DNA from: Polytrichum commune
Lineage: Eukaryota > Streptophyta > Polytrichopsida > Polytrichales > Polytrichaceae
Length of the DNA stretch: 64,000 bases
Reading direction: 5' to 3'
NCBI GenBank assembly: GCA_950295325.1
Contig: OX485803.1
Span: 248,001-312,000, forward strand
In this document: piece after piece, positions 2,341 to 62,843 of the stretch
How the letters are laid out: each line of letters starts with the position of its first letter
How positions within the stretch are numbered: position 1 is the stretch's first letter
The notes under the pieces: generated by a model
Seen by the model: the letters and a program-made list of their open reading frames with translations, nothing else
Database searches by the model: none
What the model was told of the DNA's origin: nothing
Position numbers and translations under genes: made by a program

Positions 2341-2426
2341 TAAAACCTCGAGAATCCAAGTTATGGGTTCCTTTAGTCTTCCTTTGAACTCGTCCTAAAT
2401 TAGCTAAGACATGACAAGAAACTTAA

Positions 2427-3269: not shown

Positions 3270-3985
3270 ACAAGTTGAGAGCAAATTTGCAGACAGGAGC
3301 GAAATGAAGTTGAGCGACCAGATTCGACAGAAGTGGGACACTTTTCTCAAGTCCCAGAAAATAAGCAAAAAAGTGGTTGGGCCAGAAGAATTACTCTCAA
3401 CTTGTCGATAAGGAAATTGGTTATGATGTTGGAGACTTGAAACTAGAAGTAAAAATTGAAGAGAGAATGGTACATGATCATCGACAAGTGCCAAGTGAAC
3501 TCTTAACAACCCAACTCTCAAACCTCAGATTTGTTGGATAGCCGTATGCATGTTGTTCCAGTTCATTCCTCAGGGACCCAAAGTCAAGCCTACAATTACC
3601 TACCAACTTTGCGGAGTGCATCCCCTGGCACTGGTTGCAACTCTCCTACCCACAGTCAAACCACCAATGATCATCCACCTCTTGATGACTCAGATGACGC
3701 ATGTGTTGAAATTACCCCAGATAATAACCACATACAAGCAGAATCTGGTTTTCCAAACTGGTGCTGCTCCTACCTCTGTAATGTGATAGATTGAAGGTCC
3801 AAGTGCACCACCTGCATTCATGCCCTGAATTCGGCATGGTCAGGCTACGAAAAAATGCAGATCCTCAAAACCAGGCATCCCCGGCCCAACATCAAGCCAA
3901 CTGTATTGACCATCCAGGGTTGCAGAGTTCATCCCCAGGTGGCACTGCTTACAATCCACTTACTCACAGTCAGGCGAACCACAAT
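2667..3985. repeat. Near-perfect inverted repeat: two 603-bp arms, 113-bp loop
   Basis: The left arm (2667-3269) and right arm (3383-3985) are reverse complements with no indel. Comparing them base by base I find one mismatch, near 2873/3779. Paired positions sum to 6652 throughout. Both arms derive from the C-terminal half of the trihelix exon. The loop (3270-3382) continues the right-arm copy inwards, encoding on the plus strand the trihelix segment around 'SDQIRQKWDT'. The outer right end coincides with the first bases of the CACTA element. If transcribed through, the RNA would fold into a hairpin of about 600 bp. An assembly artefact is possible but is made less likely by the asymmetric loop and flanks. 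Confidence 0.93.
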
Positions 3986-4029
3986 CACTACTACAATGGG
4001 GGCAATTTAGAACGTTTCTGGAACGTCCT

Positions 4030-13843: not shown

Positions 13844-14135
13844 AAACCATTCCCAAAATCTCGTAGAGATCTTGTGCCAATCAGTACAATCGGCCTTACC
13901 CTTGCTAGGGCGACCTCCATTTCCGAGACCTGCCCGCTTTACACATGACACAAGAACTCGTTTTCGGCATCAGACCATTCACAGCTCGGTCTTTTGTTGC
14001 CTCTTGGTGTCTTTTTGCTTCTTGCGGGAGAATGTAACTGAACTCTGTAATTGCCCTGTTCAGGGTTACTTGGCTCTGAAAATTCATGTCTCCTTCCTTT
14101 GGGAGGATGAGCACCCGAGGTTTCGATACTTGGAT
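13844..14135 (-). pseudogene. Unit 0: N-terminal part of the trihelix exon
   Basis: This matches the first quarter of the trihelix exon of units 1-3, from the acceptor region at 14135 through 'CEWSDAENEFL' to the segment equivalent to 'EISRRFLDKF', where it is cut by the CACTA terminus. The frame is shifted by small indels. The missing next segment, around 'SDQIRRKWD', occurs instead in inverted orientation at 3285-3385. Coding exon 1 is absent upstream. Confidence 0.82.
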
Positions 14136-14560
14136 CTGAAGTATAACAATTCCAGGCAAAGCAAGGTAAGTTGAACATTTATTATACCGATATATCAAAA
14201 TTCCTCGAACTACTAGTTTGGTGCACTGCGTGTTGCTCGTATGAAACATCGTGTTTTCCCTATGGCATCAGGGGCACTGACCTATATCCGGCAAAGTATG
14301 AGGCACTGTAGACCTCATTGAGCCCCATCCAGCACTCCGGCTCACATCAATGTGGGTAAACTTGCAATCCTACACATTGGACTCGAGTACTACATTGATA
14401 CCTTGGGAGGTGACGGGCAAGCCAATGCAAACACCTAGTAACAAATAATACTTCAATAAGCTGCCTCTCTTTGGGTTTCTCACTGGATCAAGAATTAACC
14501 CCAAATTGCTCATTGATCTTCATATAAGTATGGAAATTTTCATACCTATAGAATAGGGAA
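14136..14560 (-). other. Unit 0: intron and flank remnant, leading to a deletion
   Basis: The sequence follows the intron between coding exons 1 and 2 of the other units (compare 29394-29790) as far as about 14520. It then ends at the MITE at 14561. Exon 1 and the leader intron are missing, so the unit 0 gene has lost its 5' end. Confidence 0.65.
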
Positions 14561-28700: not shown

Positions 28701-29991
28701 CAATACATGCGTCACCTGAGCTACCAAAAGGTGGACTATCATAACTCGTTTGACTGTGGGTAGGAGAGTTGCGACCAGTCCCAGGGGATGCATTCTGCAA
28801 AGCTGGTGATTGATTGTAGGCCTGTGTTTGAGCCGGTGGAGACTGATCTGAGACAACGTGCACACGGCTATGCAATAAACCTGGGGTCTGACAGTTGGGT
28901 TGCTGAGAGCTCACTTGGCATTGGTCGATCATCATGTACCATTCTCTCTTCAATCTTATTGCTAGTTTCAAGCCTCCAACATCGTCATCAAAATCGTTAT
29001 CGGCAAGTTGAGAGTAATCCTTATGGCCTAAAAACTTTTTGATACTTTTGTGGGATTTAAGCATAGTGTCCCATTTCCGTCGAATTTGGTTGCTCGATTT
29101 CACTTGGCCCCGGTCTCCAAACTCAAGCAGAAATCTCTCAGAGATCTCGTCCCAATCAGTACAATTGGCTTTACCCTTGCTACGGCGACCTCCGTTTCCA
29201 AGGCTTCCTTGCTTACACGTGATCAAGAACTCGTTTTCGGCATCAGACCATTCACACCTTAGTCTGTTGTTGCCTCTTGGTCTCTTGTTGCTTCGTGCGG
29301 GGGTTTGTGTCCGAACTCTGTCATTGCCTTGGTCACGGCTACTTGGCTCTGTTCCTTGAGGAGCATGGGCACCCGAGGATTCGACACCTGGACCTGCATT
29401 GTAGAAATTCCAGACAATGTATGATCAGGTACATGGAAAGACATCATTACTATATATTGCTTGAATTATTACTTTGTTATATTGCCTGTCGCTTGTATAA
29501 AACATTGTTTTCTCAATCTGGCATCAGAGGAAGTTACGTATATCAGGCAAACTATGAGGTACTGTCGACCTGATTGACCACAATCCAGCACGCTGGTCCG
29601 CATTAATGTGAGTAAACTTGCACTTATGGGCGTGGCAGTCGGGTACTAAATTGAAACCTTGGGAGAAGAAGTCCAAGCCATTGCAAACATACTACTAATA
29701 ACGATACTTAAAACAGCTTCACCTTCTTTGGGTATCTCACTGGATCAAAATGTAACTCAAATTGCTGGTCGATCATCTTATAGGGAGGGAAGATTTTAGT
29801 TTATGCACGCATCAAGAGCTTGCACAAGAAATCCACTTGGAATGTGACAAAGACTAACCTCCCCCTGGTATTCCGGTATTGAAACCAGCTGGATGGCACT
29901 GAGCTGGACCAATTGGAGCATGCAAAACAGCTGAGGCCACCTGTTGAGGCATGTCAAGATACTGCCCATAAACCGTTGGGGAAGAATCGAT
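25784..29991 (-). pseudogene. Unit 1: trihelix / winged-helix-like / LRR gene, disabled
   Basis: All four exons of the family are present with intact GT-AG borders: exon 1 29859-29991, exon 2 28189-29393, exon 3 27566-27712, exon 4 25784-26973. Exon 2 is open, with the trihelix domain and an 18-nt in-frame insertion just before it (an extra 'RPRGNN'-like segment). Exon 3 is open. Three lesions disable the gene. The start codon position reads ATC at 29989-29991; the next in-frame ATG is 13 codons on. A 4-nt deletion early in exon 4, next to 'WTVNLK', shifts the frame. Farther on, a TAG replaces the GAG in 'LLREVDL'. Transcripts could still make a trihelix protein without LRRs. The LRR exon also carries a three-copy 18-nt repeat absent from its sisters. 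Confidence 0.85.
26426..26479 (-). repeat. 18-nt in-frame tandem repeat in the unit 1 LRR exon
   Basis: Three consecutive copies of an 18-nt unit encode repeated 'SLKHLS/P' hexapeptides. Units 2 and 3 have one such hexapeptide ('SLKYLH'), so this is a local slippage expansion. Confidence 0.85.
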
Positions 29992-43479: not shown

Positions 43480-46400
43480 TCAAAAATCGCTATCACTACC
43501 ACTTTCACTTTCACTTTCACTTTCACTTTCAAAGAAGATATGAGAAGCAGCAGAGACATTCCACTCCGTTGCAGTTAAAAATGTCTTCTCCCGAAGCTTT
43601 GACAACCATTCGGGTAGGTCGCCACTTCCCAGCTTTCTCAAGAAAGGAGTGCCCTCGAGGTTAACCCATCGAAGTTTATTCAAGTGACTCAAATCAGGAA
43701 GGTGTTCCAAGTCACTGTCCTCACAGTCTAAGTACGTCAAGCTCTCCAGCTTCTCTACTCCAAGGGTGCCCTCGTCCCAGAAGTTCCGACTATGGCTAAA
43801 GTCCAAGGAAGACAGGTGGCGTAGGGCACTCAAATCTGCTCTGTATTCGGGATCATCGTACCAGTCGAAATTGCACTTCTCAAAACTGAGGTCAATCAGT
43901 GAATGCAACACACTAATAGATTGGACAACCCGACTGGGGACATATGCATTTAAAAGGCTAAAGGACTGTAGCTTCTCCAAATTGGATAAATGCTCAGAGA
44001 TGCCCAAGTAAAGAAAATGCCCGGACATTGTCAGTGATTGCAATTGACAACCTTCACTGCTCTCAAGCCAATCACCATCAACTAATTCATCATGATATTC
44101 ATCTGGCACACGCATTAGATGGAGGTACTTCAGTGAGGACAAGTGCTTCATCTCAGGGTAAACAGGGTGTGAACAATCCCTGACTTTTAGCCACTCGAGT
44201 TTTGTAACATATTTCCAGCCAGTCACACTTACTTTCCGACACTCTTGCATAGTGAAGGATCGTAGGTTTGGCAAATTCCTCAAGTCCACCTCTCGGAGAT
44301 ACTTACACTGGTAGAGACACAAGTCTTTGAGGTGCTGATGTTGTACAGATGTCCTAAGAACCAATCCACCACTACGACGACGTGTAAACAGCTCCAGCCC
44401 TTCTGATAACCGACGTTGCAGAGATCTTTGCAAATCTCGATGTCCATCGTGCCGAATGTGTAGGTGAATCTGATGTTTGGGGTATTTTCGAATCACACTC
44501 AACACAAATTTCTGGTATGCCTTTTTCACTTTCTTCAATTTCACTGTCCACATTTGCAAAAATCGCCATTGCAGGGGACGCTCGCTATCGCTAAATAACA
44601 GCTGAATGTCCAATAAACCATGAAGTGCAAGTTCCTGCACCTGCCATAGGTTTAGGGTTTATGGTCAGGTTTTAGAATTTAGGCTTGTAGACAAATCAAA
44701 AGCACATAACTGAGAAAATTAGATTGCATACAAGCAACGTGCTCGTGATATGTTAAGAAAAATCAAGATATTTCGAAAATGAGGACAAACCAGATATTGG
44801 TTTCAGACTCTCTGTATCGATCTACTCCCTTCCAAAACTAGGTTCACGATTATGACAAGCTAGAAATGTGATCTGGCTCTTCACAAATTCTGTTCTCTGC
44901 CAGACTCTGCTATATGCGAAGGAGCGAGCATGCCTCATCTCCTTGAATCCTTTTCAAGCCAGAGTTTTCCTCAATGACACGTAATTGACGGGTTGGGCTG
45001 AATCTTACTAACCTTGGGTGGGTAGCGTTCAGAGTTATATATTTATTCGCGTCTTCGTATCAAGTGGACGAAACCACCTTCAAAGATTCAGATTACCGAG
45101 CACATCGATTTTGGTATCCTCCTGAACTACCAGGTAACGTACTGAAGCTCATGAATTTCTGGCTGTACACTAACATACCCTGTCAGCCTGAGAACAAACA
45201 CTTGAAACGAAATTGAGAGGTTGGTTAGGAACTTACAGATGCCATCATGTTGATGGGGTCTTCGTCGTGCAAACTAGCGAGCCATTGGCATACACCTCGT
45301 AAGTTATCAGGTATCTCGCAAACGATCAAATCAAGAAGTACACTCTTCGTTGTCTCTGAAAGCGAGTCGAAGTATGGAATAGCCTGCATTCAACAACCAC
45401 CATGGATATTCCATCAGCTTGATAAATAGAAGTATAGACCAGTACTTAACACACGTGCAGTATTGAAATAAGCAAACCGATGTATAACTACACGATGGTA
45501 AGCAATGGCCCAAATCACGGTGTTGAATTTCTGCTCCCATAGATGCTTCGATGACCAGTCAACGCCACGTGATCGTCACAAACCTTATAATATCAAATGG
45601 AGGCGTGGATCGGACCTCGACATGCATAGTTGCAGGGAATTCCTGCGGATGGCTTACATAGTGTGTTTAGGAGAATCTGTAATAATTCAAACTTCATGTT
45701 GAAGCCCACTGGGAGTTGTGTGGCTACACAATGATCGTGAAATCAGTCAGAACAGAGTGTAGTAGACCTTGAGGAAGAAATGATTCTGAGTGCAAATTAA
45801 AATCCAAGATTCTCTTGTGTCATTCTAGCTCGGATATGAAATGACAAAAAGAACACTTACAACTTGTTGCAGTGGTCTCCTTTCTCCCAGCTGTTGTGCC
45901 TCGTCTTGAATTCCTGTTGATTCGGTAGGAGCAATATCAATCGATGGCGCAGCGATTGGCAATTGATCACTCTGACCTCGATCCTCTGTCATTGCTTGTA
46001 AAGTAGCACAACGACCAATTTGTGAATTCTCTGCTTGTAGGTGACCGTCACCTGAGCTAAACCCAACACCAGTATCGGCTGTGTGACCAGAGAGTGGACG
46101 ATAATGGTTTGCCTGACTGTGGCTAAGTGGATTGTAAGTAGTGTCAGGGGATGAATTCTGCAGACGTGGATGGTCAGTACTGTTAGCTTCGTTTTGGGTC
46201 GTGGGAGCCTGACATTGTATCTCTGCAAGATTGGTAGCCTGAACATGATAAATCCATGGTTTGAATGTCGTCGGTACACTTTGACCTTCACTCTGTCTCA
46301 TTCCGACGGCAGAAGCAGCACCACTTCGAAATCCATTCTCTGCTTGTCTGTGGATATTACCTGGGGTGACTTCAACACATGCGTCACCTGAGCTACCAAA

Positions 46401-47650
46401 AGGTGGATTATCATAAGTCGTTTGACTGTGGGTAGGAGAGTTACGACCAGTCCCAGGGGATGCACTCTGCAAAGCTGGTGATTGATTGTAGGCCTGTGTT
46501 TGAGCCAGTGGCCACTGATCTGAGACAACGTACATACGGGTATGCAATAAACCTGGGCTCTGACAGTTGGGTTGCTGAGAGCTCGCTTGGCATTGGTCGA
46601 TCATCATGTACCATTCTCTCTTCAATATTATTGCTAGTTTCAAGCCTTCAACATCGTCATCAAAATCCTTATCGGCAAGTTGAGAGTAATCCTTATGGCC
46701 CCAAAACTTTTTGATACTTTTGTGGGATTTAAGCATAGTGTCCCATTTCCGTCGAATTTGGTCGCTGGATTTCACTGGGCCCCCGTCTCCAAACTTGTCA
46801 AGAAATCTCCTAGAGATCTCGTCCCAATCAGTACAAGTGGCATTACCCTTGCTACGGCGACCTCCGTTTCCAAGGTTTGCTTGCTTACACGTGATCAAGA
46901 ACTCGTTTTCGGCATCAGACCATTCACACCTTGGTCTCTTGTTGCTTCGTGCGGGGGAACGTGTCTGAACTCTGTCATTGCCTTGGTCAAGGCTACTTGG
47001 CTCTGTGCCTTCAGGAGCATGCCCACCCGAGGGTTCGACACCTGGACCTGCATTGTACAAATTCCAGACAATGCATGATGAGTTACATGCAAAGACATCA
47101 TTCCTATAACTTGCTTGAATTAATACTTTGGTATATTGCCTGTTGCTTGTATGAAACATTGTTTTCTCAATCTGGCATCACAGGAACTTACCTATATCAG
47201 GCAAACTATGAGGTACTGTAGACCTGATTGACCACGATCCAGCACGCTCGTCCGCATTAATGTGAGAAAACTTGCAATTATGCGCGTTGCAGTCGTGTAC
47301 CAAATTGAAACCTTGGGCCGGGAGAAGAAGTCCAAGCCAATGCAAACATACCACTCATAACGATACCTAAAACAGCTTCACCTTCTTTGGGTTTCTCACT
47401 GGATCAAAATGTAACTCAAATTGCTCGTCGATCATCTTATAGGGATGGAGAATTTTAAATTATGCACGCATGAAGAGCTTGCAAAAGAAATCCACTTAAA
47501 ATGTGACAAAGACTAACCTCCCCCTGGTATTCCGGTATTGAAACCAGCTAGATGGCACTGAGCTGGACCAATTGGAGCCTGCAAAACAGCTGAGGCCACG
47601 TGTTGAGGCATGTCACGATACTGCCCATAAACCGTTGGCAGAGAGGCCAT
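43480..47650 (-). CDS. Unit 2: trihelix / winged-helix-like / LRR protein, 875 residues
   Basis: Four exons with GT-AG borders: 47518-47650, 45861-47047, 45237-45383, 43480-44640. Phases are 1, 0, 0 and the frame is open throughout. Residues 1-44 are unidentified. Residues 85-160 are a trihelix (Myb/SANT-like) DNA-binding domain with spaced Trp87, Trp119 and Trp146, preceded by a basic 'RSNKRPR' stretch that may direct nuclear import. Residues 200-440 are Ser/Pro/Gln-rich and hold two diverged copies of a roughly 110-residue repeat ('NSPTHSQ', 'NPLSHSQ'). Residues 441-489 ('FDSLSETTKSVLLDL...VCQWLASLH') resemble the winged-helix part of NLR receptors, continuing into 'LALHGLLDIQ'. Residues 590-850 are about ten LRRs, then an acidic Ser/Glu tail. 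No P-loop NB-ARC is encoded. A DNA-binding or immune-receptor role is inference. Confidence 0.78.
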
Positions 47651-47680
47651 GAAGAAATACAGAAGGAACGCCCAGAATTA

Positions 47681-48984
47681 GCTGAAGTAAGTCTTGTGGA
47701 CTCGACTCAATGATTGAAGCAATCTGGAACAAGTACAACACTGAAACGTAAGGGCGTTGTACTACAGATTTTATTGCAGATAGTAGAATCCAAGTAGCGT
47801 GACACACATCTTCATACATACCCTACAGGATTTTCCTATCTTTTCACTGCTACCTCAACAGTTAGCTGATGATTCATTCGACATTGATTCCACTCCCAAT
47901 TCAACCTTTCATATCTTGCTACTGTATAATATAGCATCAAAAGAATGGAATTACAGCCTTATGTTTGATAGGCACTGATTCAATGTAGTTGGTTGATGTG
48001 ATTGAATCAATGTGAAAACGATGTTCAATTTTGGATATACAGTTCTATGATACGGAGTGGATTAAACACTTGGATCCTCTACTTCAGCTCATACGATGTC
48101 AATCTTATACAGGCTAAGGCAAGCCCTCAATGGAACATCTCTGCAAAGAAAAAAAAGGAAAAAAAAAACAGGCAACACTAGTGGGATCTTCACGATGCTC
48201 TCCAAATTAAATCACTGCTTTTGAAGACCATGTGCGAGCCTGATCAATATGTAACTTAACACAACCTGCTGAAGACTGAGTTACAGTGTAGCACTCATCA
48301 CCCAAACTCCGCCAAAAACTTTGCAACCAGAAGAAATAGAATATTAGGGACACCTTACGAGCTGCTACTTGTTGCTGGAGCAACACATGAACAAATTTGG
48401 AAGGCTTACCTACGAGAATTCCAGAAGTTGTACGCATCGCGTGCACAAATTAGCTGTTGGCACTTGCACTCTGTCTACAGGGGATCTACTTGAACTGGTG
48501 AATCCTGAATTGCTTCAACTTCGAGGACTTGAAGTTGGGGTCTGTTGAAGAGAAGCACGGATGAGGCTTGTTGCCCAATAAGCTGTTGGGTTTTGGTTTA
48601 TGAGTGCCTCAGAGATGGTGGAAACAATTTCAGGAAGAGATCTCCGAGTCGATACAGAAAGGAAGTAACTTACTTAAGCAGGGGCTGGCTGGCTTCATAT
48701 CGGAGGTGGGTCCTTCGTGAAACTGGGATACAGACAGATGGAGAAGCACCTAGCCTACCTTCGCTATCAGAGACAAAAAGAAGGGACGGCGATCATCATC
48801 GATGCCATGGGTGTATCAGAGCTAGGTTACTCTACGAAACATGTCGGACGAGCATGTAATCTTCCTCATATCGGACACTAGGTACCTCGAAGTTGAGACA
48901 GAACGGGGTGCAAACCTAATTAAGTGAGAAGTGTGCAGAAGAATAAGGAGTGCTCCGGTATGTCAGAGACGGTGGGCCTTCTGA
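47681..48984 (-). promoter_or_regulatory. Unit 2: leader intron, leader exon and proximal promoter region
   Basis: Exon 1 is extended upstream to a conserved acceptor at 47681. A leader intron runs 47682-48409, and a non-coding leader exon ends at the donor at 48410 (CTCGTAG followed by GTAAGC). The transcription start is not determinable. The leader frames are not conserved between units. A MITE begins at 48985, about 0.5 kb upstream of the leader exon, in this unit only. Confidence 0.5.
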
Positions 48985-49590
48985 GGGCCTGTTTACACAA
49001 TGGGCCATGAAGTCGGACCATGGAAGATGGCCTTTTCCCATGGTCCGACTTGATGGTCTAACTTCCATGGTCCGATTTCTTATCAAATCAATTTATAAAG
49101 CCTTTGGGCCTTTCACTAAGTGTAAACAGAATGTGGATCAAGAGGAATGACCATGCACCAAAAAGTGAATGCGATGATTTTTTTTTAATAATATATGTCC
49201 AAAAAGGGCAGTTTTGAGAAGAAGAAAAAAAATTAGAAAATTAGAAAATTCCAGTTTGACCATTCTCTTGTCTTCTTTCGTCTTCATCTTGTCTTCCCCC
49301 AAAAAGAAATTCATCAACAGTTTTATTATATCAACATTTCTCGCCATGGGCCCTTGGTTTTTTCTATCAAAGCACCTCTTTTGTCTCTCCCACCACAAAA
49401 CCCATTGGACCATGTCAGTGGATGATGTAGGCCTTGAAATACATCTTTTGAGGACCTCGAACTCCATGGTCAATCTAACATTTTTCCTCCCTTGGTATAA
49501 ACCGAAATGGTCCCGGGATGAGTTCAACAGCCAATCATCAATTTTACATGGCCTTGGTACGACTTCACGGTCCATGGTGTAAACATCCCC
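48985..49590. mobile_element. PIF/Harbinger-like MITE, 606 bp, upstream of the unit 2 gene
   Basis: The ends GGGCCTGTTTACACAATGG and (reverse complement) GGGGATGTTTACACCATGG are inverted repeats, flanked by TGA (48982-48984 and 49591-49593). Unit 1 shows the uninterrupted site (CTTCTGATGATG near 31287). The termini resemble those of the 15756 element (GGGCC..TTTACAC.A.GG), so they are one family despite TAA versus TGA duplications. Frames on both strands (49138-49582) are chance products of the palindromic arms. Confidence 0.78.
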
Positions 49591-52500
49591 TGATGAGGAG
49601 TTTGGACTTGCACCCTCATATCAAACACTTCATGCAAACCTGGTTGAAAAACGGAGAAGTGTGTAGGTTAGCACCGACTGGTACTAATGTGCAATGAACA
49701 GGTACAAGCCACAGTTAGTTTGCGAAATCACCGGCTCAAATTCAAGGCTCAACGAAAATTGCCAATCGATTTAGTGGAATCTATGGAATATCCTGTTTAT
49801 TCATAGAGAAAGGCGTGAAAGATGTCAACATGTAACCTGTTCACATGGAAAGAATAGGATTTCAACCAATTATGCCCAAAAATCTCCCTTGACATTGCTT
49901 ATGTGGGCCTTATTTATAATTTTTGTGAGGCACAGTAGGCGCACACATTCCGGATTGTGACCTATTATAAACACCTAAAATTAGAGGCTTAGTAATGGAC
50001 ACAAGGCCTATGGTAAGGAGTAGGATAACCTTTATCATTTTGCACACACAAACTCGTCTACTGCTACAGTGTAGCACACCGTGACATAAACTATGTTATA
50101 AATTGTCTTTAGTGTCGTTGGGTATTTTATGTCACTTTGGCAAATTTTCTAGTGACATTTCTTATGAATAAGTTTACACGCACCGTCCTCCCAATTTACT
50201 TTTAGTTCATCCAAATGCCAATTACTGAAACAATGACTGTTATATTATTCATCCTAACAATCATGTGACGAAATATTGTCATGGATGATTGAAATCTGGA
50301 TGAAAAAAACACTTGGGAAGTGACAATACTTGTAACAATGTACACCTATAATGCCCCTCCTTTTTTTTTAACAGGGAATGACAAATAATGTGTTTGGTTT
50401 ACACTTACGGTTGGGGACACTACACGGGCGGTTTACAATTACATATACAATTGGTGACACTAGATATAATGTTTGGTGCGGTGAGTGGAGGCTTCGACAT
50501 GGTAGATAGGACCATGGATTTGTCATTTTTACACTTTCAAAGTTCATATCTATGGAATTGTAATAAAGTATGACATGTCACTTGTGGTCCCATGTCTCAC
50601 AATCATGTGAATTTCGGGAAGGTCGTATGATATTAGTCAATGCACACTTTGTCTTGTGCAAGACGCATGTGATGACCACAATGGAGTCAAGATGGGTAAC
50701 ACAAATGAATGCCCCTACATGATCGTGAATTTTAGGATACTCCAACATGTGAAATCTGTATAAATTTGATATACAATTCAAACGTTTCAACTCACATGAC
50801 ATCCAATTCCATTTTGAAAGGTTGTTTTAACAAGATTAGTAGCATTTAAATCATATCACTCTAATTATTCTCACTCACCAAAATAATGAATGGTATAGGT
50901 GCGACTATTGTAGACAATGTGTTGGATCGTATAAAACAAGGTGGATTTGCTCAAAATGTCTGATAGGGAGGATCTTTTGGCCTCATATTTTGCGTGGAGT
51001 ACCTCTCCTATCACATATTGTTTCTAGACTATTGAAAATTGAAATTTTGGTGAGTCATGGACCTTCGATTTGTGGTGTAAAGACGCGATGTGAGAATAAT
51101 GTGATTGTGCTTCCCACCGGACATGTTGTTTCGTTACCATCATATTAATACACTATAATTATCAATTACATGATAAGATGTGATCATTCAAGTGTCATGG
51201 GATTTCTAAGTATCAATGCCTTACGGAATTGTGTTAGATCCACCTCTTTGAGTTGAGCTTGAAGAAAATTCAATTACAACATAAAACATCATTTAATTTA
51301 AACTTATGCAAGATTGCATGTATTCAAATTTCATCCATTCAAATTCCCTTTGGTCCCTTAGGCCCTCGAGCTCTAGTGTAAAATGCAGTGGGACAAAATC
51401 TTCTTATTCCACCAACGTGAGGTCTTGGATGTCAATTGTCGCAGGCCCCCAAGCTCTAATGGGACTTGCCCCTTAGTGTCATCCATGCTTTTCATCTTCA
51501 ACACACAAAGGTATCTTGCAATCATTGCACAACAACCAAACAAAGTGGCATGGGAGACTTGATTTTACATGACAAGTCATGAGACCACTCTATTCAACCT
51601 AGAATCTCCATTCTAGTGCCACACCAAATCGAAGATATAGTGTGCATACGCACATGTGATGCTATAGTGTATTGATCGATTCTTCCTTGGGGCAAACAAA
51701 ACAAATATAATTGGTGAGAGGCATAACACATATAAGAGACAAGTTTAGTGACTTGAAACAGACAATTTAGGCTTGGCATCACATGTCGCATGTGATTGAT
51801 ACGAGATAATTAGCAAATCCAAAGCGTGGTTGTAACCATTTTCCTCATATTCTAAATATCTTATCCATTGTCAAAGTTAGATTCTCTTTCTTAATAACAT
51901 CTACTTCTTATATTCAATGTTTGGAATCTTAATGGACATTAAGCGCAATATCTAATATTCTAAAAACACACACATGTCTTTCTAATGTATGTTCTTAGGT
52001 ATGCACTAACTACACACCAATCGATACATGTGTCCAATGAATACAAGTAACCGAATTAGGCATGCTTACCTTGTGTTTGCTCTAGTAATTGAAGGTCCAT
52101 ACATTGTAGAGTCTAAACCTAAGGTGAACAACCCTTATTTGTTTACGTTTCTTAAGTGAACACCAATATTTGAGTGGTATGTGGTTAGGTGTGGCTCCAA
52201 GAATAAATATGAACAATACATGAGTTTAAAAGATAACGAACTCAAGTAGAGGCACCCGTAACCGATCGCTTAAGAGATTATGCGCCAAATTGGGAGAAGT
52301 ATAAGGTGGTGCAAATTACCCCCATGTAGGATGATAGAATCACGAGGATTGCAATTTTTTGAGAATTTGGTTCCTCAAATTATATTATTAATGTGAAATT
52401 TTGAAGCCAAAAGTTGGCCCAAACATAATATCAATGTCTATAGTTTGCCATAACCAATCAATTTAACTGTTCATTCCTCCTCACTTCAACATCCAAACCA

Positions 52501-54970
52501 GGGACATGTGTCATGACACTATTGGTTTTGCCTTTATTGAAATCTAGTCCTAGCCTAATGAAAATTAAGGCACCCTATAGGTTCCCAATGGGGTCCTAAT
52601 TAGGAATAGGTACTTCGACTATATGTGCTCCAAACACAACAACCATTCTAGGTTCAATGGTCAACATAATTGGTGGAATCCACAGTAGGGGCACCTATTC
52701 CTGATAAGGACCCCATCGGCAATCTATAGGATAATGTAATTTCAATTTGGTTGGGACTCAATTTCGATCAAATTGGAACCGATAGTACCATAACACATGT
52801 CCAAGGTTTTGAGTGCTAAAGTGAGGAGGAATGAGCGGTTTAGAGGAGCGGTTCTAGACATTGGGAATACGGTTGGGCCAACTTTTGGCTTCAAAACTTT
52901 GTAGTAATCTCAATGCAAGTTATATAATTACCAAAAAAATTGCAGTCCTCCTTATTTCTATCTTCCTACATGGGAAGAATTTGCATTGCCTTATACTTCT
53001 CCGCACCACACCTGACGCAAAATCTCTTAAGTGGACGGGTATGGGCGCCTCTACTCCACATAACCTCTCAAACAACAAGAGAATCTTCCGCATCGATAAT
53101 GAATAAGATATTTACATGAGCTCCAAAAATAATGAAGTAAGCGACCATAACCTCCATTGAGATTTTATACGGATCTCATACTAATCGCGTGTTTTATCTC
53201 CTCGGAGAAGTGGGCTAGTAGGAAAGTAACCATTTAAAACCCACCAACCTTATTTTCCTGGAATCATCATGCCACTTGGATGTGTGTGCCCATGACCAAG
53301 TGCACGCGATTACATAGAATTTGTATACCAACATCTCCTAGGGCTAGGAATTCGTGGCATCTACGTAAACTTATCCATTACGAAGATGAAAACACAATGA
53401 ATTATTTTACAACATGTAAGCGACTATTTTAAGACATTCGGGCTCCAGAAGAAATATCAACAGCCCCAAATTAGTTTGTTTACTTAGAGGCCACGAATGC
53501 CAATCCCCATCTAAGATGTATGGAAATTGTATCGGAGACCCAACGAGGTGACTCACTACCATAAGTATTGGGACATAGAATGGGAGTGTACATAAAAGAC
53601 CAGGCTTCCGATAGAGGTCTCATAATAATGGCTAGGGTGAACCAACTCCTACACTCGTACCCTCTGGGGATGAAGGCCTCGCGGATGACACTCAAAAGTT
53701 CATCCTTCTTTATAGGAAAGCCCCCCCCCCTTAGAAAGCCTATCTTTATGGCATGGGAAATATAGGACCTACACGAGTTGGCATCCAAAGCCCGTATTAG
53801 ATTAACTACAAGTCATGCATGAATCAATAATTAATATTATCTCCTTTAATTGGGGGACATTAAATACCCTCCCATGAACTTTTCGGGGGGAATATTCTGT
53901 TAGGGGCAGCCGCCCGTCCATTTTTCTGCACCCGACCGAAAACTGCTGCCCGCCCGCCCGCCCTACTTCGAAAAAACTATTGTACTTGCATTTTTGAAGG
54001 CTACTTGTCCACAAATCCCATATTGAGTGCACTTCATTTTCAAGGTCTCAAATCCAATATATATGTTCACTTCAATTGATAAATAAGCAATTGACTACAT
54101 TTCATTTTCAAAGTGAAAGCGCCAATAAAGCATGTAATTAATTTGGAAGTCAAAAATATTACAAAATCCTCATTAGTAATGAGGTTATAATTTTTGTCAC
54201 TTACAATTCAAAGGGACTTTGTCATTCTAAAATGAAACTAAAATCAATGATTTGTTTTTATATTTGAATAGTTTAATATAATCTATAATCTATTTAACAC
54301 CTTCTACTATCACAAAGTTTTCATATGCATTTAAACTAGTTAAGTAAGATTGAATGCAACTAAGTCTAATATATTCTGATTAATCCTAATTAAGCCTATT
54401 TAAGCCCAATTAAATCAGAAAGTATGCGTACCAAATTAATTAAGCCTAATTAATTATAAAATGTACTTACTAGAATTAATCATGATTTAAATGGAATTAA
54501 CTCCAGTAAATATAATTTATGATTCAGGAAGTGACATTAAGGAGGTTGATGTTACGGGATTCAAAGTGCATTTGGTCAAGAAATCAAGGGAGGCCCAATT
54601 TCCAATCCAATTATTTTGGTGATGCACATACCATAAAGCGTTGGATCGTCTTCACTTGAGAATGTCCACTTGGCACTGCAAATGTCGAGGTGGAGGGGTC
54701 CTTGGGATGGTTTACATAAGGTCCGGGTTCCAAAAACCTCGGATCCAAAACACCCTTCAGATTTGGTGGGAGAGTGATGCCACATTAACACCACTTCGGT
54801 TTGTTTATACGTCGGTCCCATACTACTCGAGTCAAAACTCCTTGGGTCCTTAGCCACAACCAATAAGATCACTTGATTTTGGATTTTGGATTTTTTTATA
54901 TTATTATTATTATTATTATTATTTTGGGTTTGGGATCATAGTAGAAACCTACCCTTAATAATTTAGGGCC
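49591..54970. repeat. Unit 2 distal flank and block R-B
   Basis: The first 125 bp complete the gene's upstream flank. From about 49717 the block aligns with unit 1 R-B. It lacks the solo LTR and the palindromic MITE of that copy, so it shows both empty sites. Between about 53630 and 54525 the sequence differs from unit 1 and includes a C run near 53720 and repeated CCCG near 53950. No gene is recognisable. Confidence 0.75.
52249..53051. mobile_element. Long-TIR MITE, 803 bp, copy in unit 2
   Basis: The same element and insertion point as 37021-37803, beginning GAGGCACCCGTAACC and ending GGGCGCCTC. The interiors are nearly identical by eye, while a short segment after the left end is present only here. 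Confidence 0.75.
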
Positions 54971-57900
54971 CAAACCCAAAAAAATTGCATGTTAAAAGAA
55001 CCCTTGTAATTATACGTAATTCTAGCACCTTACCTGACATATCCCTTTTCCCACCCAACCTTGTCACTCAGCCGAATAATGTTAGGAAGCATAACTTAGA
55101 AGTGTGTAGAATAATAATTAGTGCTCATGTATGTGGGCGTTATCATGTGGAGCTTTGACATGTGCCATCCCTACACCCAATAAAAGGGTAAAACAATGCA
55201 TCGATATTAACCCCTAAAGGCCAAGGTAGATGTTCTTTTTTGTCTACAATCACCTCTGCCCGACAATAATGGTGTCCACGTTTATGTTTCAATCCTCTTA
55301 CCTTGGACACTTGGGTAGGTGAAACTTTGTGAACTATGTTAATCCTACATAGCTTTTATGTATATGATCATATTTACCATAAGAGGTGCCAATTATTTAA
55401 AACGCTCTTTTGAATTAAACTCAATTGTTATAGATGATTTGGAAGATTTTGCTTCAACTTTTAGGGGTTAAAATCATGGTATAATCATATACTCACATGT
55501 TATGTACAATCAATCTGTGATGTTCCATACGAATGTTTTTTTCTCTTTCAAATGACTATTTTCGGAAGGATGGATGGGGATGCAAATGAAACCATTTAAG
55601 TTCAATTGTTTTGTGACACTTGATTGGATAGGTAACGGCTTCGAGCAAGAAGAAAATAAAATATGATAAAAATTTATTTCTTTAATCACATGTGCAACTC
55701 ATATATATATATATATGTCTTATCACCGATTGAATGTAATAGAAACATCACATCCTTGTGAAAGGAGGTTCTCATGTGCACATATCAATAAATTGATACA
55801 TCAAATAAAACTCTAAACCTTGTGGATGTATCCAAGTTAAAGTTCTTTCAACAATTTTCCTATAATATAAAGAACACTCTAGATCCCAAAGTCATTCATA
55901 TGATGTCATATGGATATTCAAAAATTGTAATAGAAACCCTCAAGTTTGATGATCAACACCCAAAACCCACCTTACTCATGGTAGTTTCAATCCAATACTT
56001 TTATTTTACAAACCACTATCCTTGCAATAGTCATCGTGGACATCGGCAGTAGATGTTGATTGCAATGTTGAGTTTTATTACCATCTTTTAACTCCATCAC
56101 AAATGTACATTGTGCTTAGCATTCAAAGCATTTGGAGGTTTTCTCTTTTCATGTTAACACTTGACCCTCAATAGCCTAAGCGTCCCAAAATGGAAGCCTG
56201 AACTTCAAATCATGCTTTTGTGCAAGTGTGCATGTATACATATGTATATATGTATTCCCAAATCCAACGATAGAACTAGGATTCACGTGATTCTAGACAA
56301 ACATGGTGGTCGACATCATCCTCCGAATCCCCTCAATATCATGACTTCTCCTCACAACTTTGTTGTGTTGCAACATATGTCACTTTTATAAGTTCATTAT
56401 CATGCATTTTTGCCCGTATAGTTGTGTGATTGCACTACGTTTTTGTTTGTTATCACACAATATGTGCATAATTCTAGACTATCCAAAAATCCAGCATCAC
56501 ATAAATACCAATCAATAACTTTTCACCTCTTTATCACCTTTATACCTTGATCATAGCATCTAATAAAAATTTCACTTTATACCCAATGAAATGCCAGTAT
56601 CTAATAGGTTATTATAAAAGTTCAGTCACTTCAAGATCATCATGATATGCATAAAAAAAAATTCCATCATTCTATATAATCTATAATTACAGTCTATGGT
56701 ATCAAGTTATGTCATCGCGACAATGAGAAGTTGGGATTCTCAAAGTGATCACTTGTAAGTTGTAAATTCAATATGAGAGACCAGAAGGACGTTTTGTATT
56801 CACAACCAATGGATGTGATTCTTTGATGGGGCTCCAAAGCCTTGGTCGCCTTTTAAGGTGCCCAAAACCCTGAAATTTCCCATCCTCCATACACCATTGG
56901 TAAATTTACCAGCACTTTCACCTACTTGTGGACACATGGACGGTTCATTTTAAGACATAATCTTATGCTCTAAATTCGCTTTACATTCATACATGTACTT
57001 TACAATTTGGATTTCCCATTTTCATTTACATATAAACTAGCTGTCAACCAACTATTGTGGAGTGCCTTGGGGGCTAAAATATGTAAGTTGCCTTTAGGGT
57101 CCGGGGGAACACCCTTCACTAAAAGCATATGTCATGTGTGTGTCACCTTCATTTTAATATCCCTAATATACAAGTTTTTGGAGGACAAAAATATGGTATA
57201 CTATACATACAATTTCACACCTAAGAAATAAAAAGTGTGTGTGTATATATATATGATGAAAATTTCATAACATTATTTAGATTCATAACAATGTTTTGTG
57301 TGTTAAGAATATTCTACAGAATATTCCCTATATTCATACTAGACACGAGGAATATTCTACAAAATACTATCAGCCCCACAAAACATTGTTATGAATCTGA
57401 AGAATGTTATGTTGAATAAAGAGGTAGTATCATAAGTTGTTTATACAAGAAAAAAAAAGTATGTATATATGTATGCACATACGATTACGTATACATTTGT
57501 CACTATTTTAATCCATTTAATATTCAATTGTACGACGTTACCTTCATTGATTATATTGTGCCCCGTTTGAGGAAAATGATCAATTCTCCTCGTAATGTTG
57601 TAATAATTAAAAAGGAAAATTCATCTTGAATTTGTTTATGGAGACCTTGATATGACGGGCTACAATAAAACATATCATATAGCAGTTGGTGGAAATGTGC
57701 AAAACAACATGAAGTGATACAAATATCAAACTATCATATGAGGTGAGAGAAACATGAGGCACAAGCAATAACCAATCTCAATTGTCTGTGAACACATATT
57801 CTACACATGAAAGCCAACCTCACAGGGATATTTGAAATAAGAAATCATCACAAATACCTACTTTCAAACATGACTCTACCATTTGAAAACAAGAGTCTCA

Positions 57901-58701
57901 TTTGGTATGTTTGTTAGTCGAATTCTAGTACTTGACTTCTCAAATTGATGTAGTTGATTATTATAGTATCTTAAATTGAACCATGCATGCCAAAATATAT
58001 AAACCATTTGTATGTTACCTGCATGTGTATTCGTTAACGGCAAGTGATGTGGCATATTGTGGCATAAGGTAATGCATCAAGCATGTGTAATAAACTTGGT
58101 GGATATTATTTGCACATAAATTGTATCATGTTTACTTGCTTTTAAGTAAGGAAATGAACGATGTAATTGTATGCATTGGATTCATGTAGTTGAATTTGGC
58201 AAATAAGACCCATCTATTGGACACCTATTGAAAAAAACCCAAAAAGAAACATACAAGTCAAAGCAAGTGTCAAGAGTTTTATCGTGAAGTATAAATTTAC
58301 CATGGCCTAGCTAATAACAAAGAATTAATAGCTCATTATATTAAACATCACAACCACATAAACATGTAGTTTCCTAGTTAGATCTAGGGCTTACATGTGA
58401 GAGAAACACCTTGCCCTACATGCAAACCTGCAATTTCTACATAAATTCAAGGGCTACCAATTCTCATTAAATACCTTGCCCTACTAGCTAATGCCAAGAT
58501 TCTAAGAATTTAATAAAACTTCTTACCTTAGCACTCCAGTGATCATCATGACTTGCACAATGGTGGTCCTAAAGGATTTAGCAATAATCTACTTCCTAAC
58601 ACAATGACTTCCCAATGACAAATTGCTCTACCTTAATTAGCTTCAAATCAAACTTTCATATACATTGCAAACTGGCAGCAAGCCACCCTTTCACTTACAG
58701 G
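54971..58701. repeat. Tandem-unit block R-A, copy in unit 2
   Basis: Aligned with 18685-22960 and 39520-43479. It keeps the left half-kilobase that unit 1 lost, but lacks about 0.7 kb present at 41450-42250 in unit 1. It contains (TA)n near 55700. It is non-coding and ends as the 3' flank of the unit 3 gene. Confidence 0.8.
57266..57411. mobile_element. Palindromic MITE, 146 bp, unit 2 R-A
   Basis: Same insertion point and length as the copy at 41235-41380, with a few substitutions, so it was inherited through the tandem duplication. Ends CATAACATT and AATGTTATG. Confidence 0.85.
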
Positions 58702-61700
58702 TCAAGATTCGCTATCACTACCACTACCACTTTCACTTTCAGAGAAGATCTCTGAAGCATTAGAGTCATTCCACTCCGTTGCAGTCAAAAATGTCTCCTC
58801 CCAAAGCTTTGACAACCATTCGGGTAGGTCGCCACTTCCCAGCTTTCTCAGGAAAGGAGTGCCATTGAGGTAAACCGATCGAAGTTTATTCAAGTGACTC
58901 AAATCAGGAAGGTGTTCCAAGTCACTGTACGCACAGTTTAAGTACGTAAAGCTCTCCAGCTTCTCTACTCCAAGGGTGCCCTTGTACCAAAAGTTCCGAG
59001 TAAGGGAAAGGTCCAACGAAGACAGGTGGCGTAGGGCACTCAAATCTGCTCTGTATTCGGGATCATCGCACTGTTCGAATGTGCTCAAGCCAAAACTGAG
59101 TTCAATCAGTGAATGCAACACGTTAATAGATTGGACACAACAACTGGGGACATCTACTTCAAAAAGGCTCAAGGACTGTAGCTTCTCAAAATTGGCCCAC
59201 TGCTTATCGGTACCGAAGTAAACAAAAGGCCCAGATATAGTCAGTGATTGCAATTGACAACCTTCACTGCTCTCAAGCCAATCATCATCAAATTCATTAA
59301 CGAAATCTTGATCCCCACACTTAAGATGGAGGTACTTCAGTGAGGACAAGTGCTTCATCTCAGGGTAAGCAGGGTGTAAACAATCCCTGACCTTTAGCCA
59401 CTCGAGTTTTGTAACATATTTCCAGCCAGTCACAATTGCTCTCGGACACTCCAACATAGTGAAGGATCGTAGGTTTGGCAAATTCCTCAAGTCCACCTCT
59501 CGGAGAAGCTCCGTACACTGGTAGAGACACAAGTCTTTGAGGTGCTGAAGTTGTACAGATGTCCTGAAAACCAATCCACCACCACGACGGCGTGTGAATA
59601 GCTTTAGCCCTTCTGATAACCGACGTTGCACAGATCTTTGCAAATCTCGATGTCCATCGTGCCCAATGTGTAGGTGAATCTGATGTTTGGGGTATTTTCG
59701 AATCACACCCAACACAAATTTCTGGTATGTCTTTCTCTCTTTCTTCAAATTCAAGGTCCACATTCGCGAAAATCGCCATTGCAGGGGAAGCTTGCTATCG
59801 ATTAAAAACAGCTGAATGTCCAATAAACCATGGAGTGCAAGGTCCTGCACCTGCCATAGGTTTAGGGTTTATGGTCAGGTTTTAGAATTTAGGCTTTTAG
59901 ACAAATCACAAGCACATAACTGAGAAAATTAGATTGCATACAACCAACGTGCTCGTGATATGTTAAGAAAAATCAAGATCTTTCGAAAATGAGGACAAAC
60001 CAGATATTGGTCTCAGACTCTCCGTGTCGATCTACTCCCTTCCAAAACTAGGTTCACGATTATGACAAGCTAGAAATGTGATCTGGCTCTTCACAAATTC
60101 TGTTCTCTGGCAGACTCTGCTATATGCGAAGAAGCTAGCATGCCTCATTTCCTTGAATCCTTTTCAAGCCAGAGTTGTCCTCAACGACACCTAATTGACG
60201 GGTTGGGTTGCATCTTGCTAACCTTGGGTGGCTAGCGTTCAGAGTTATATCTTCATTCGCGTCTTCGTATCAAGTGCTTGAAATCACCTTCAAGGATTCA
60301 GAATACCGAGCAGATCGATTTTGGTATCCTCCTGAACTACCAGGTAACGTACTGAAGCTCACGAGGTTCTGGCTGTACACTAACATACCATGTCAGCCTG
60401 AGAACAAACACTTGAAATGAAATTGAGAGGTTGTTTAGGAACTTACAGATGCCATCATGTTTATGGGGTCTTCGTCGTGCAAACTAGCGAGCCATTGGCA
60501 TACATCTTGTAAGTTAAAAGGTAACTCGCAAACAATCAAGTCAAGAAGTACACTCTTCGTTGTCTCTGAAAGCGAGTTGAAGTATGGAATAGCCTGCATT
60601 CAACAACCACCATGGATATTCCATCAGCATGATAAATAGAAGTATAGACCAGTACTTTACACACGTGTAAGCATACAGATGTATAACTAAACAATGGTTA
60701 GCAATGCCACAATCACGGTGTTGAATTTCTGCTCCCATAGATGCTTCGATGACCAGTCAACGCCACGTGATCGTCACAAACGTTATAATATCAAATGGAG
60801 GCGTGGATCGGACCTCGACATGCACAGTTGCAGGGAATTCCTGCGGATGGCTTACATAGTATGTTTAGTAGAATCTGTAATAATTCAAACTTCATGTTGA
60901 AGCCCACTGGGAGTTGTGTGGCTACACAATGGTCGTGAAATCAGTCAGAACAGAGTGTAGTAGACCTTGATGAAGAATTGATTCTGAGTGCAAATTAAAA
61001 TCCAAGATTCTCTTGTGTCATTCTAGCTCAGATAAGAAATGACAAAAAGAACACTTACAACTTGTTCGAGTGGTCTCCTTTCTCCCAGCTGTTGTGCCTC
61101 GTCTTGAATGCCTCTTGATTCGGTAGGAGCAATATCAATCGATGGCACAGCGACTGTCAATTGATCACTGTGACCTCCATCCTCTGTCATTACTTGTAAA
61201 GTAGCACCACCACCAATTTGTGAATTCTCTGCTTGTAAGTGGCCGTCACCTGAGCGAAACCAAACACCTGTATCGGCTGTGTGACCAGACAGTGGATGAT
61301 AATGGTTCGATTGACTGTGGGCAAGTGGATTGTAAGTAGTGTCAGGGGATGAATTCTGCAGACGTGGATGGTCAGTACTGTTGGCTTCGTTTTGGGTCGC
61401 GGGAGCCTGATTTTCTAAATCTGCAAGATTGGTAGCCATAACATGATAAACCCATGGTTTGAATGTCGTCGGTGCACTTTGACCTTCACTCTGTCTCACT
61501 ACGACGGCAGGAGCAGGACCACTTCGAAAACCATTCTCTGCTTGTCTGTGGATATTATCTGGGGTAACTTCAACACATGCGTCACCTGAACTACCAAAAG
61601 GTGGACTATCATAACTCGTTTGACTGTGGGTAGGAGAGTTGCGACCAGTGCCAGGGGATGCACTCTGCAAAGCTGGTGATTGATTGTAGGCCTGTGTTTG

Positions 61701-62843
61701 AGCCGGTGGGGACTCATCTGAGACAACGTGCACACGGCTATGCAATAAACCTGGGGTCTGACAGTTGGGTTGCTGAGAGCTCACTTGGCATTGGTCGATC
61801 ATCATATACCATTCTCTCTTCAATCTTATTGCTAGTTTCAAGCCTCCAACATCGTCATCAAAATCCTTATCGGCAAGTTGAGAGTAATCCTTATGGCCCA
61901 AAAACTTTTTGATACTTTTGTGGGATTTAAGCATAGTGTCCCATTTCCGTCGAATTTGGTCGCTGGATTTCACTGGGCCCCCGTCTCCAAACTCGACCTC
62001 AAATCTCTCAGAGATCTCGTCCCAATCAGTACAATTGGCCTTACCCTTGCTACGGCGACCTCCGTTTCCAAGGTTTGCTTGCTTACACGTGATCAAGAAC
62101 TCGTTTTCGGTATCAGACCATTCACACCTTGGTCTCTTGTTGCTTCGTGCGGGGGAACGTGTCTGAACTCTGTCATTGCCTTGGTCACGGCTACTTGGCT
62201 CTGCGCCTTCAGGAGCATGCGCACCCGAGGGTTCGACACCTGGACCTGCATTGTAGAAATTCCAGACAATGCATGATCAGTTACATGCAAAGACATCATT
62301 ACTATAACTTGCTTGAATTTATACTTTGGTATATTGCCTGTTGCTTGTATGAAACATTGTTTTTCTCAATCTGGCATCAGAGAGAGTTATATATATCAGG
62401 CAAACTATGAGGTACTGTAGACCTGATTGACCACGATCCAGCACGCTGCTCCGCATTAATGTGAGTAAACTTGCAATTATGCGCGTTGCAGTCGGGTGCT
62501 AAATTGAAACCTGGGAGAAAAAGTCCAAGCCAATGCAAACATACTACTAATAACGATACTTAAAACAGCTTCACCTTCTTTGGGTATCTCACTGGATCAA
62601 AATGTATCTCAAATTGCTCGTCGATCATCTTATAGGGAGGGAAGATCTTAGTTTATGCACGCATCAAGAGCTTGCACAAGAAATCCACTTGGAATGTGAC
62701 AAAGACTAACCTCCCCCTGGTATTCCGGTATTGAAACCAGCTGGATGGCACTGAGCTGGCCCAATTGGAGCATGCAAAACAGCTGAGACCACCTGTTGAG
62801 GCATGTCACGATGCTGCCCATAAACCGTTGGCGAAGAATTCAT
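58702..62843 (-). CDS. Unit 3: trihelix / winged-helix-like / LRR protein, 871 residues
   Basis: Exons 62711-62843, 61059-62245, 60447-60593 and 58702-59850 have the same phases as unit 2, and the first three have identical lengths. The protein starts 'MNSSPTVYGQHRDMPQ'. The trihelix Trp residues 87, 119 and 146 are kept, although 'SDAENE' reads 'SDTENE'. The low-complexity region and the two internal repeats are kept. Exon 3 differs slightly ('CELPFNLQDVCQWL'). Compared with unit 2 by eye, changes are sparse in exon 2 and dense at the surface-strand positions of the LRRs. The tail is Ser/Glu/Gly-rich. No frame lesion is visible. As for unit 2, function is inferred from domains only; a split into two genes (trihelix, LRR) is the main alternative. 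Confidence 0.78.

What the first reader, a model, noticed from the sequence alone, without database searches (positions are those of the whole stretch)
43480..62843. A gene family joining a trihelix DNA-binding domain to an NLR-like winged helix and LRRs, without an NB-ARC
Seen: two copies (43480-47650 and 58702-62843) keep the same four exons with identical phases, GT-AG borders and open frames. The third (unit 1) keeps the same borders. The introns between trihelix, helix and LRR exons are only about 0.5-0.6 kb and hold no nucleotide-binding domain. Known: NLR immune receptors have NB-ARC before LRR and sometimes carry integrated DNA-binding decoys. Inference: this is either an NLR that exchanged its nucleotide switch for a trihelix domain, or a nuclear DNA-binding protein that took an NLR tail. 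I know of no described family with this order.
Basis: partly seen in the sequence, partly recalled or inferred. Interest (0 to 1): 0.78.

Follow-up and report, generated by a model that had tools for sequence, protein, structure and literature searches.

The report
Trihelix–leucine-rich-repeat fusion gene cluster
A plant-type gene that joins a DNA-binding trihelix domain to a fast-changing leucine-rich-repeat domain, with no nucleotide-switch domain found, sits in tandem copies; it looks like a stripped-down immune-receptor relative, but the link to immune receptors rests mainly on how its repeat surface varies.

Summary
Two copies (B 43480-47650, C 58702-62843, minus strand) give open four-exon frames of 875 and 871 aa, GT-AG, phases 1/0/0. 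A third (A) lacks the start codon there and is broken in exon 4; an older copy (D) is broken. The shared borders alone prove little: the copies are recent segmental duplicates whose introns are as alike (93-96%) as the exons. Better evidence: 223 exon substitutions between B and C, no stop (10.9 expected), exon indels only 3, 3 and 12 bp. But amino-acid change is as fast as silent change (dN/dS 1.08).

The trihelix domain is firm (Pfam above cut-off). The C-terminal LRR fold is firm. No NB-ARC was found in the parts scanned. The "NLR winged helix" is only weakly supported: no Pfam match; 7 (B) and 15 (C) of 4000 shuffles fit a TIR-NLR profile as well; a second scoring failed in C.

The strongest receptor-like clue is new: a hypervariable LRR patch where core leucines stay and exposed residues change. 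Most likely a nuclear recognition protein with an NLR-like tail and a trihelix bait or output. New variant of a known kind; mechanism unproven.

The parts
43480..47650 (-). Copy B, whole coding region (open, 875 aa)
47518..47650 (-). B exon 1 (start ATG, residues 1-44)
   Evidence: start codon is inferred, stops lie in frame upstream
45861..47047 (-). B exon 2: KRPR NLS-like cluster at residue 81, trihelix domain (residues 84-158 by Pfam), Q/S/P-rich linker with an internal duplication of about 89 aa
45384..45860 (-). B intron 2 (phase 0), 477 bp, no NB-ARC found
45237..45383 (-). B exon 3 (residues 441-489): helical by model, weak TIR-NLR winged-helix likeness
44641..45236 (-). B intron 3 (phase 0), 596 bp, no NB-ARC found
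43480..44640 (-). B exon 4 (from residue 490): about 100 residues of uncertain fold, then about 10 LRRs and an acidic Ser/Glu/Asp tail
43726..44150 (-). Hypervariable LRR patch of B: divergence to C 0.12-0.21, A/B 0.19-0.36, A/C 0.24-0.37; B/C elsewhere 0.02-0.10
58702..62843 (-). Copy C, whole coding region (open, 871 aa): exons 62843-62711, 62245-61059, 60593-60447, 59850-58702
25784..29991 (-). Copy A: same borders; no ATG at the homologous start, exon 4 out of frame and cut by a stop; LRR part still open (25784-26623)
13844..14540 (-). Old copy D, 5' piece (start of exon 2 with the first half of the trihelix, and part of intron 1), broken
1503..3269 (-). Old copy D, end of exon 2 followed by start of exon 4 and an LRR remnant, with stops; 92-95 bp between the two matched pieces where B has about 1.0 kb, so no room for exon 3
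3266..3987 (+). Inverted second piece of D exon 2; with the first it forms a palindrome 2666-3986

Best explanation
This is a small tandem birth-and-death cluster of a plant-type gene whose protein joins an N-terminal trihelix (Myb/SANT-like) DNA-binding domain, through a flexible linker, to a C-terminal module that looks like the tail of a TIR- or kinase-type NLR (start of the winged helix, then LRRs), without the nucleotide-binding part. Most likely working: the LRR surface binds a variable, probably pathogen-derived, ligand; the trihelix domain brings the protein to the nucleus or chromatin and serves either as bait for effectors that attack trihelix factors or as output. Without a nucleotide switch it would act as a sensor or decoy with partners, not as a self-assembling resistosome. 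Shown: gene order, trihelix, LRR fold, open frames kept, a hypervariable LRR surface on a kept leucine core, no NB-ARC found in the parts scanned. Inferred: splicing into one protein, NLR origin, nuclear site, ligand and output.
For: Trihelix above Pfam cut-off in A, B and C. LRR: Foldseek best E 2.4e-6, 180 PDB chains at E<=0.001; ten-residue pLDDT means of 57-87 over residues 101-340 of C's exon 4 frame; best Pfam LRR models, under cut-off, are LRR_R13L1-DRL21 and LRR_14 (that these were built on NLRs is recalled). Hypervariable LRR patch. In 10 LRR strands picked by eye on B, changed core-leucine positions against changed exposed positions: B/C 4 of 30 against 20 of 60 (p 0.047); A/B 3 of 27 against 26 of 54 (p 0.0012); A/C 2 of 27 against 26 of 54 (p 0.0002). 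No stop in B or C against 10.9 expected. The D piece with the start of exon 2 and the first trihelix half differs from B less than its intron does (39 of 245 against 95 of 397 sites, p 0.016). TIR-NLR winged-helix profile at exon 3: 7 of 4000 (B) and 15 of 4000 (C) shuffles as good. Introns 2 and 3 are phase 0; PMC3352924 (passages) reports phase-0 introns between NBS and LRR in HNL, PNL and TNL classes, and between N-terminal domain and NBS in HNL and PNL, so loss of an NBS exon could keep the frame (inference). D keeps exon 2 before exon 4 on one strand, so the order predates the A-C duplications.
Against: dN/dS is about 1 in exons 1, 2 and 4 (1.14, 1.01, 1.18) and 0.51 in short exon 3, none significant; trihelix part 13.5 nonsynonymous against 1.5 synonymous changes, not significant. 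In the hypervariable patch 1.07-1.39, none significant, with dS raised too, so import of diverged sequence by recombination fits as well as selection. No third-position excess between D and B in the main exon 2 piece (0.233/0.201/0.201) or in the inverted one (0.208/0.216/0.225); D's exon 4 piece is no less diverged than the noncoding DNA beside it (135 of 604 against 34 of 163, p 0.75). No Pfam winged helix. MHD-like block not convincing: B 61 of 2000 shuffles, with its best site inside the first LRR, C 655 of 2000; both blocks in order B 2 of 1000, C 180 of 1000. The first 100 residues of the exon 4 frame have pLDDT under 50. Best PDB fold matches are general LRR proteins; entries with NLRs appear only at ranks 24, 30 and 45 of the 50 listed, and FBXL17 at 9 and 21. 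No transcript seen.
Confidence: 0.42

Rival explanations
1. A trihelix transcription regulator with an LRR protein-interaction tail that has nothing to do with NLRs or immunity; the LRR binds host partners.
For: Trihelix is the only domain above a Pfam cut-off; NLR likeness of exon 3 is weak; top PDB fold matches are general LRR proteins.
Against: A hypervariable LRR patch with a kept core and a tandem cluster with broken members are more like recognition genes than like regulators with fixed partners.
Confidence: 0.25
2. Two neighbouring genes read as one: a trihelix gene ending in intron 2 and an LRR gene starting at exon 3.
For: Exon 2 read on meets a stop after 11 more codons, and an in-frame ATG lies just before exon 3; no cDNA was available to me.
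Against: A GTAAGT donor at the end of exon 2 and a CAG acceptor at exon 3, both phase 0, in A, B and C; no AATAAA on the minus strand of B's intron 2; D keeps the same order, though not the GT at that donor.
Confidence: 0.15
3. A decaying segmental duplication: all copies are non-functional or nearly so, and the open frames are left over.
For: A and D are broken; dN/dS about 1; no codon-position signal against D in the main exon 2 piece.
Against: No stop against 10.9 expected; exon 4 alone 6.4 expected, P(0) 0.0018; exon 2 alone 3.6 expected, P(0) 0.019; B/C exon indels in threes; kept LRR core.
Confidence: 0.15

Closest known systems
NLRs with integrated Myb/SANT-like domains (Myb_DNA-bind_3 in Fragaria vesca and Zea mays, table in PMC4759884, passages seen)
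   Same: A Myb/SANT-like DNA-binding domain in one protein with an NLR.
   Different: Those are NLRs with a nucleotide-binding part (that the paper selected them by NB-ARC is recalled); none was found here. Here the domain is Myb_DNA-bind_4 (trihelix) and stands at the N-terminus.
Bryophyte PK-NBS-LRR and hydrolase-NBS-LRR classes (PMC3352924, passages seen)
   Same: Unusual N-terminal domain joined by phase-0 introns to an NLR body; exon shuffling proposed by the authors.
   Different: They keep the NBS; the N-terminal domain is a kinase or a hydrolase.
Trihelix transcription factors, e.g. GTL1, a regulator of immunity in Arabidopsis (PMC6198943, abstract and section list seen)
   Same: Trihelix domain.
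   Different: LRR tail and hypervariable surface; that known trihelix factors lack an LRR tail is recalled.
Rx1, an NLR that binds and distorts DNA after pathogen perception (PMC4599002, abstract and section list seen)
   Same: Recognition and DNA binding in one protein.
   Different: By a section heading of that paper the NB-ARC of the NLR binds nucleic acid; no NB-ARC was found here.

Membership tests
Trihelix transcription factor family | Myb_DNA-bind_4/trihelix domain | tested here: met
   33.9, 35.1 and 34.3 bits against cut-off 27 in B, C and A
Trihelix transcription factor family | One tryptophan in each of three helices | tested here: met
   CEW, DWDEIS and RRKW present in A, B and C; the rule and the helix borders are recalled, the domain was not modelled
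Trihelix transcription factor family | Binds GT-element DNA | not testable with these tools
   needs a DNA-binding assay
Plant NLR | NB-ARC with P-loop | tested here: not met
   No NB-ARC match in six frames of 44.0-49.0, 33.5-43.5, 4.0-14.0 and 29.7-34.7 kb or on the minus strand of 48.7-58.7 kb, nor in the joined B protein
Plant NLR | Winged helix (ARC2) before the LRR | tested here: inconclusive
   TIR-NLR profile 7 and 15 of 4000 shuffles; wider segment 35 and 77 of 4000; Pfam none; block scoring B 93, C 453 of 2000
Plant NLR | MHD motif at the end of the winged helix | tested here: inconclusive
   best sites lie elsewhere and are not convincing; an HD..RDL string at residues 553-559 of B is seen by eye only
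Plant NLR | C-terminal LRR | tested here: met
   Pfam models under cut-off
F-box LRR proteins | F-box before LRR | tested here: not met
   small F-box profile (two solved, one typed consensus): 1597 (B) and 2910 (C) of 4000 shuffles as good over residues 431-525; 1849 (B) and no match (C) over 441-600; no Pfam F-box
NLR-type birth-and-death cluster | Tandem copies, broken members, hypervariable LRR surface | tested here: met

The most novel reading that the evidence does not exclude
A recognition protein derived from an NLR that dropped its nucleotide switch and couples a fast-evolving LRR sensor directly to DNA through a trihelix domain: sensor to promoter in one polypeptide. Surveys that start from NB-ARC would miss it.
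Probability: 0.12. Interest if true: 0.8.

Novelty: new variant of a known kind. Interest (0 to 1): 0.47.

Why it matters
NLR surveys that begin with the NB-ARC (as PMC11126693 states for its own, passages seen) would not list such genes. If the protein is real and recognises pathogens, it shows that an NLR-like LRR sensor can work with a DNA-binding domain and without a nucleotide switch, and gives a direct test of whether integrated DNA-binding domains are baits or outputs.

Tried and rejected
Rejected: F-box reading of exon 3. MHD motif as proof of an NLR. Border conservation as proof of splicing: introns are as conserved as exons. Significant positive selection: no dN/dS test was significant. 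PDB sequence search with residues 441-849 (exon 3 and most of exon 4): only weak LRR matches, best E 0.038; with residues 439-520: nothing relevant, best E 0.49; with the trihelix piece: 0 matches at E<=10.

Led nowhere: relatives in viral contigs (7 pattern matches, 0 confirmed) and prokaryote genome contigs (18 pattern matches, 0 confirmed). No plant genome collection could be searched, so distribution among plants is untested. Foldseek with the exon 3 model: 3 matches, best E 7.8. The bacterial promoter/terminator scan of 45200-46000 does not bear on a plant gene. Not scanned with Pfam in six frames: 1-4.0, 14.0-29.7, 43.5-44.0 and 58.7-64.0 kb, and the plus strand of 49.0-58.7 kb; the long exon frames of A, B and C were scanned one by one. 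One weak match elsewhere, Me-amine-dh_H at 15.2 bits against a cut-off of 21, was taken as chance.

Papers that gave no parallel: PMC3991678 (part 1 of 4 read), whose kinase-LRR genes are receptor kinases; passages of PMC5067614 (no 'Myb' or 'trihelix' in the main text), PMC12787737 (none either) and PMC11218826 (more NLRs with integrated domains in two mosses); searches.

Choice of segment: the first winged-helix test used residues 426-640 (TIR profile 11 of 2000 shuffles for B, 35 of 2000 for C; all-NLR profile 26 and 65; CC profile 474 and 847). I then narrowed it to 431-525 and tried five profiles, so 7 and 15 of 4000 are not corrected for choice.
Full report
What is there. The window carries three tandem segmental copies (A about 18.7-38.4, B about 39.0-53.6, C about 54.5 kb to the window end) and an older, rearranged one in pieces between 1.5 and 15.4 kb. 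Each of the three holds one copy of the gene on the minus strand: A (25784-29991), B (43480-47650), C (58702-62843). B and C give open four-exon frames of 875 and 871 residues with phases 1, 0, 0 and GT-AG borders. A keeps the borders but has ATC where the others have the start ATG; its exon 4 runs out of frame after about 40 codons, and the LRR frame further down is cut once by a stop. D has several stops, no exon 3 match, only 92-95 bp between its exon 2 and exon 4 pieces where B has about 1.0 kb, and an exon 2 piece doubled as a palindrome (2666-3986, 94.7%). A further GTAAGT begins four bases after the stop codon in B and C, which may mark an intron in the 3' untranslated region.

Is it a gene? 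A better test is loss of frame. With the substitution spectrum of introns and upstream DNA, 223 substitutions in the coding sequence would give 10.9 stops on average; none is seen, and 0 of 5000 simulations had none (all changes were put into one copy; with half of them, 5.7 stops and P(0) 0.0036). By part: exon 2, 3.6 expected, P(0) 0.019; exon 4, 6.4 expected, P(0) 0.0018. Exon indels between B and C are 3, 3 and 12 bp; noncoding ones include lengths 1, 5, 11 and 37. Frames were therefore kept. Yet dN/dS is 1.08 overall, 1.14, 1.01, 0.51 and 1.18 in exons 1-4, none significantly off 1. Against D, the main exon 2 piece shows no third-position excess (0.233/0.201/0.201) and D's exon 4 piece is as diverged as the noncoding DNA beside it; only the start of exon 2 with the first trihelix half is less diverged than its intron (39 of 245 against 95 of 397 sites, p 0.016). 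So frames were kept while amino acids changed nearly freely. This is the main weakness.

Domains. Residues 84-158 of B match the trihelix model PF13837; the frames of A, B and C all score above its cut-off. A KRPR cluster stands at residue 81. The rest of exon 2 is a Q/S/P-rich linker with an internal duplication of about 89 aa (34% identity, E 1.7e-10). Exon 4 ends in about ten LRRs. The AlphaFold model of C's exon 4 frame (which starts with six intron-read residues; four-row alignment) has mean pLDDT 60.8, its first 100 residues under 50, and ten-residue means of 57-87 over residues 101-340. Foldseek finds 180 PDB chains at E<=0.001, led by SDS22 (2.4e-6) and other general LRR proteins; entries with NLRs (8zf0, 4kxf, 8yn0) stand at ranks 24, 30 and 45 of the 50 listed, FBXL17 at 9 and 21.

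The winged helix. Exon 3 starts AIPYFDSLSETTKSVLLDL, like the start of TIR-NLR winged helices in solved structures (Roq1: LKISFDGLRDYEKSIFLDI). A profile of three solved TIR-type NLRs matches there; 7 of 4000 (B) and 15 of 4000 (C) shuffles of residues 431-525 score as high. With residues 441-600 the figures are 35 and 77 of 4000; with 426-640 and a TIR profile that included my typed consensus, 11 and 35 of 2000. A CC-type profile and an F-box profile do worse. Block scoring over 431-640 gave B 93 and C 453 of 2000 for the first helix, B 61 and C 655 of 2000 for the MHD block (best site in B inside the first LRR), and B 2 and C 180 of 1000 for both in order. Pfam gives nothing. The exon 3 model is all helix, pLDDT 63, with no good PDB match. 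The likeness is suggestive, not established; no plant collection was open to me to find closer NLRs.

No NB-ARC. Pfam scans with stops read as X found none in six frames of 44.0-49.0 kb (all three introns of B), 33.5-43.5, 4.0-14.0 and 29.7-34.7 kb, nor on the minus strand of 48.7-58.7 kb. The same method found the trihelix in B, a positive control. The rest of the window was not scanned in this way.

A receptor-like surface. In 150-column windows, B/C divergence is 0.02-0.10 but rises to 0.12-0.21 within the LRR at 43726-44150 of B. A against B or C is 0.01-0.15 outside, 0.19-0.37 in the patch, and 0.22-0.25 in the last window (43428-43575, the acidic tail and the end of the alignment). In ten LxxLxL strands, picked by eye on B, core positions changed in 4 of 30, 3 of 27 and 2 of 27 cases (B/C, A/B, A/C), exposed strand positions in 20 of 60, 26 of 54 and 26 of 54. 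dN/dS in the patch is 1.39, 1.29 and 1.07, none significant, and dS is raised too. This fits selection for new surfaces, import of diverged sequence by recombination, or both. A's LRR, counted from just after its stop, stayed open at this divergence (about 4.1 stops expected on its half of the changes, P(0) 0.013), so its breakage is probably recent.

Meaning. The best reading is a recognition protein built from a trihelix domain and an NLR-like tail. PMC3352924 (passages) reports phase-0 introns on both sides of the NBS in kinase- and hydrolase-type bryophyte NLRs; loss of such an exon would keep the frame, as the phase-0 introns here would allow. This is inference; the exact intron places are in a figure I could not see. 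Fusions of Myb/SANT-like domains with NLRs are in print: PMC4759884 (passages) lists Myb_DNA-bind_3 in NLRs of two species, and lists an Arabidopsis Myb/SANT-like protein among effector interactors. Searches for trihelix or Myb_DNA-bind_4 with NLR, LRR or moss (20 of 28, 15 of 15, 20 of 676, 12 of 246 and 10 of 19 papers listed) showed, by title and start of abstract, no paper with this domain order; the library holds open-licence papers only. That the host is a land plant is inferred from the domain types; the species is unknown.

Noticed in passing
18684-64000: Three tandem segmental duplications of about 15-20 kb; matched pieces are 69-94% identical, with no other Pfam domain above cut-off in the parts scanned.
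   Followed up: partly
2666-3986: A 1.3 kb palindrome (94.7%) made of two head-to-head pieces of exon 2 of the old copy D.
   Followed up: partly
45861-47047: The linker of exon 2 contains an internal duplication of about 89 residues (34% identity, E 1.7e-10).
   Followed up: yes
26424-26484: Copy A's LRR has an 18-bp tandem repeat (3.4 copies); A also has a 36-bp indel against B and C in exon 4.
   Followed up: partly
43500-43531: A hexamer repeat codes the acidic Ser/Glu tail; its length differs between copies.
   Followed up: no
43476 and 58698: A GTAAGT begins four bases after the stop codon of B and C, a possible intron in the 3' untranslated region.
   Followed up: no
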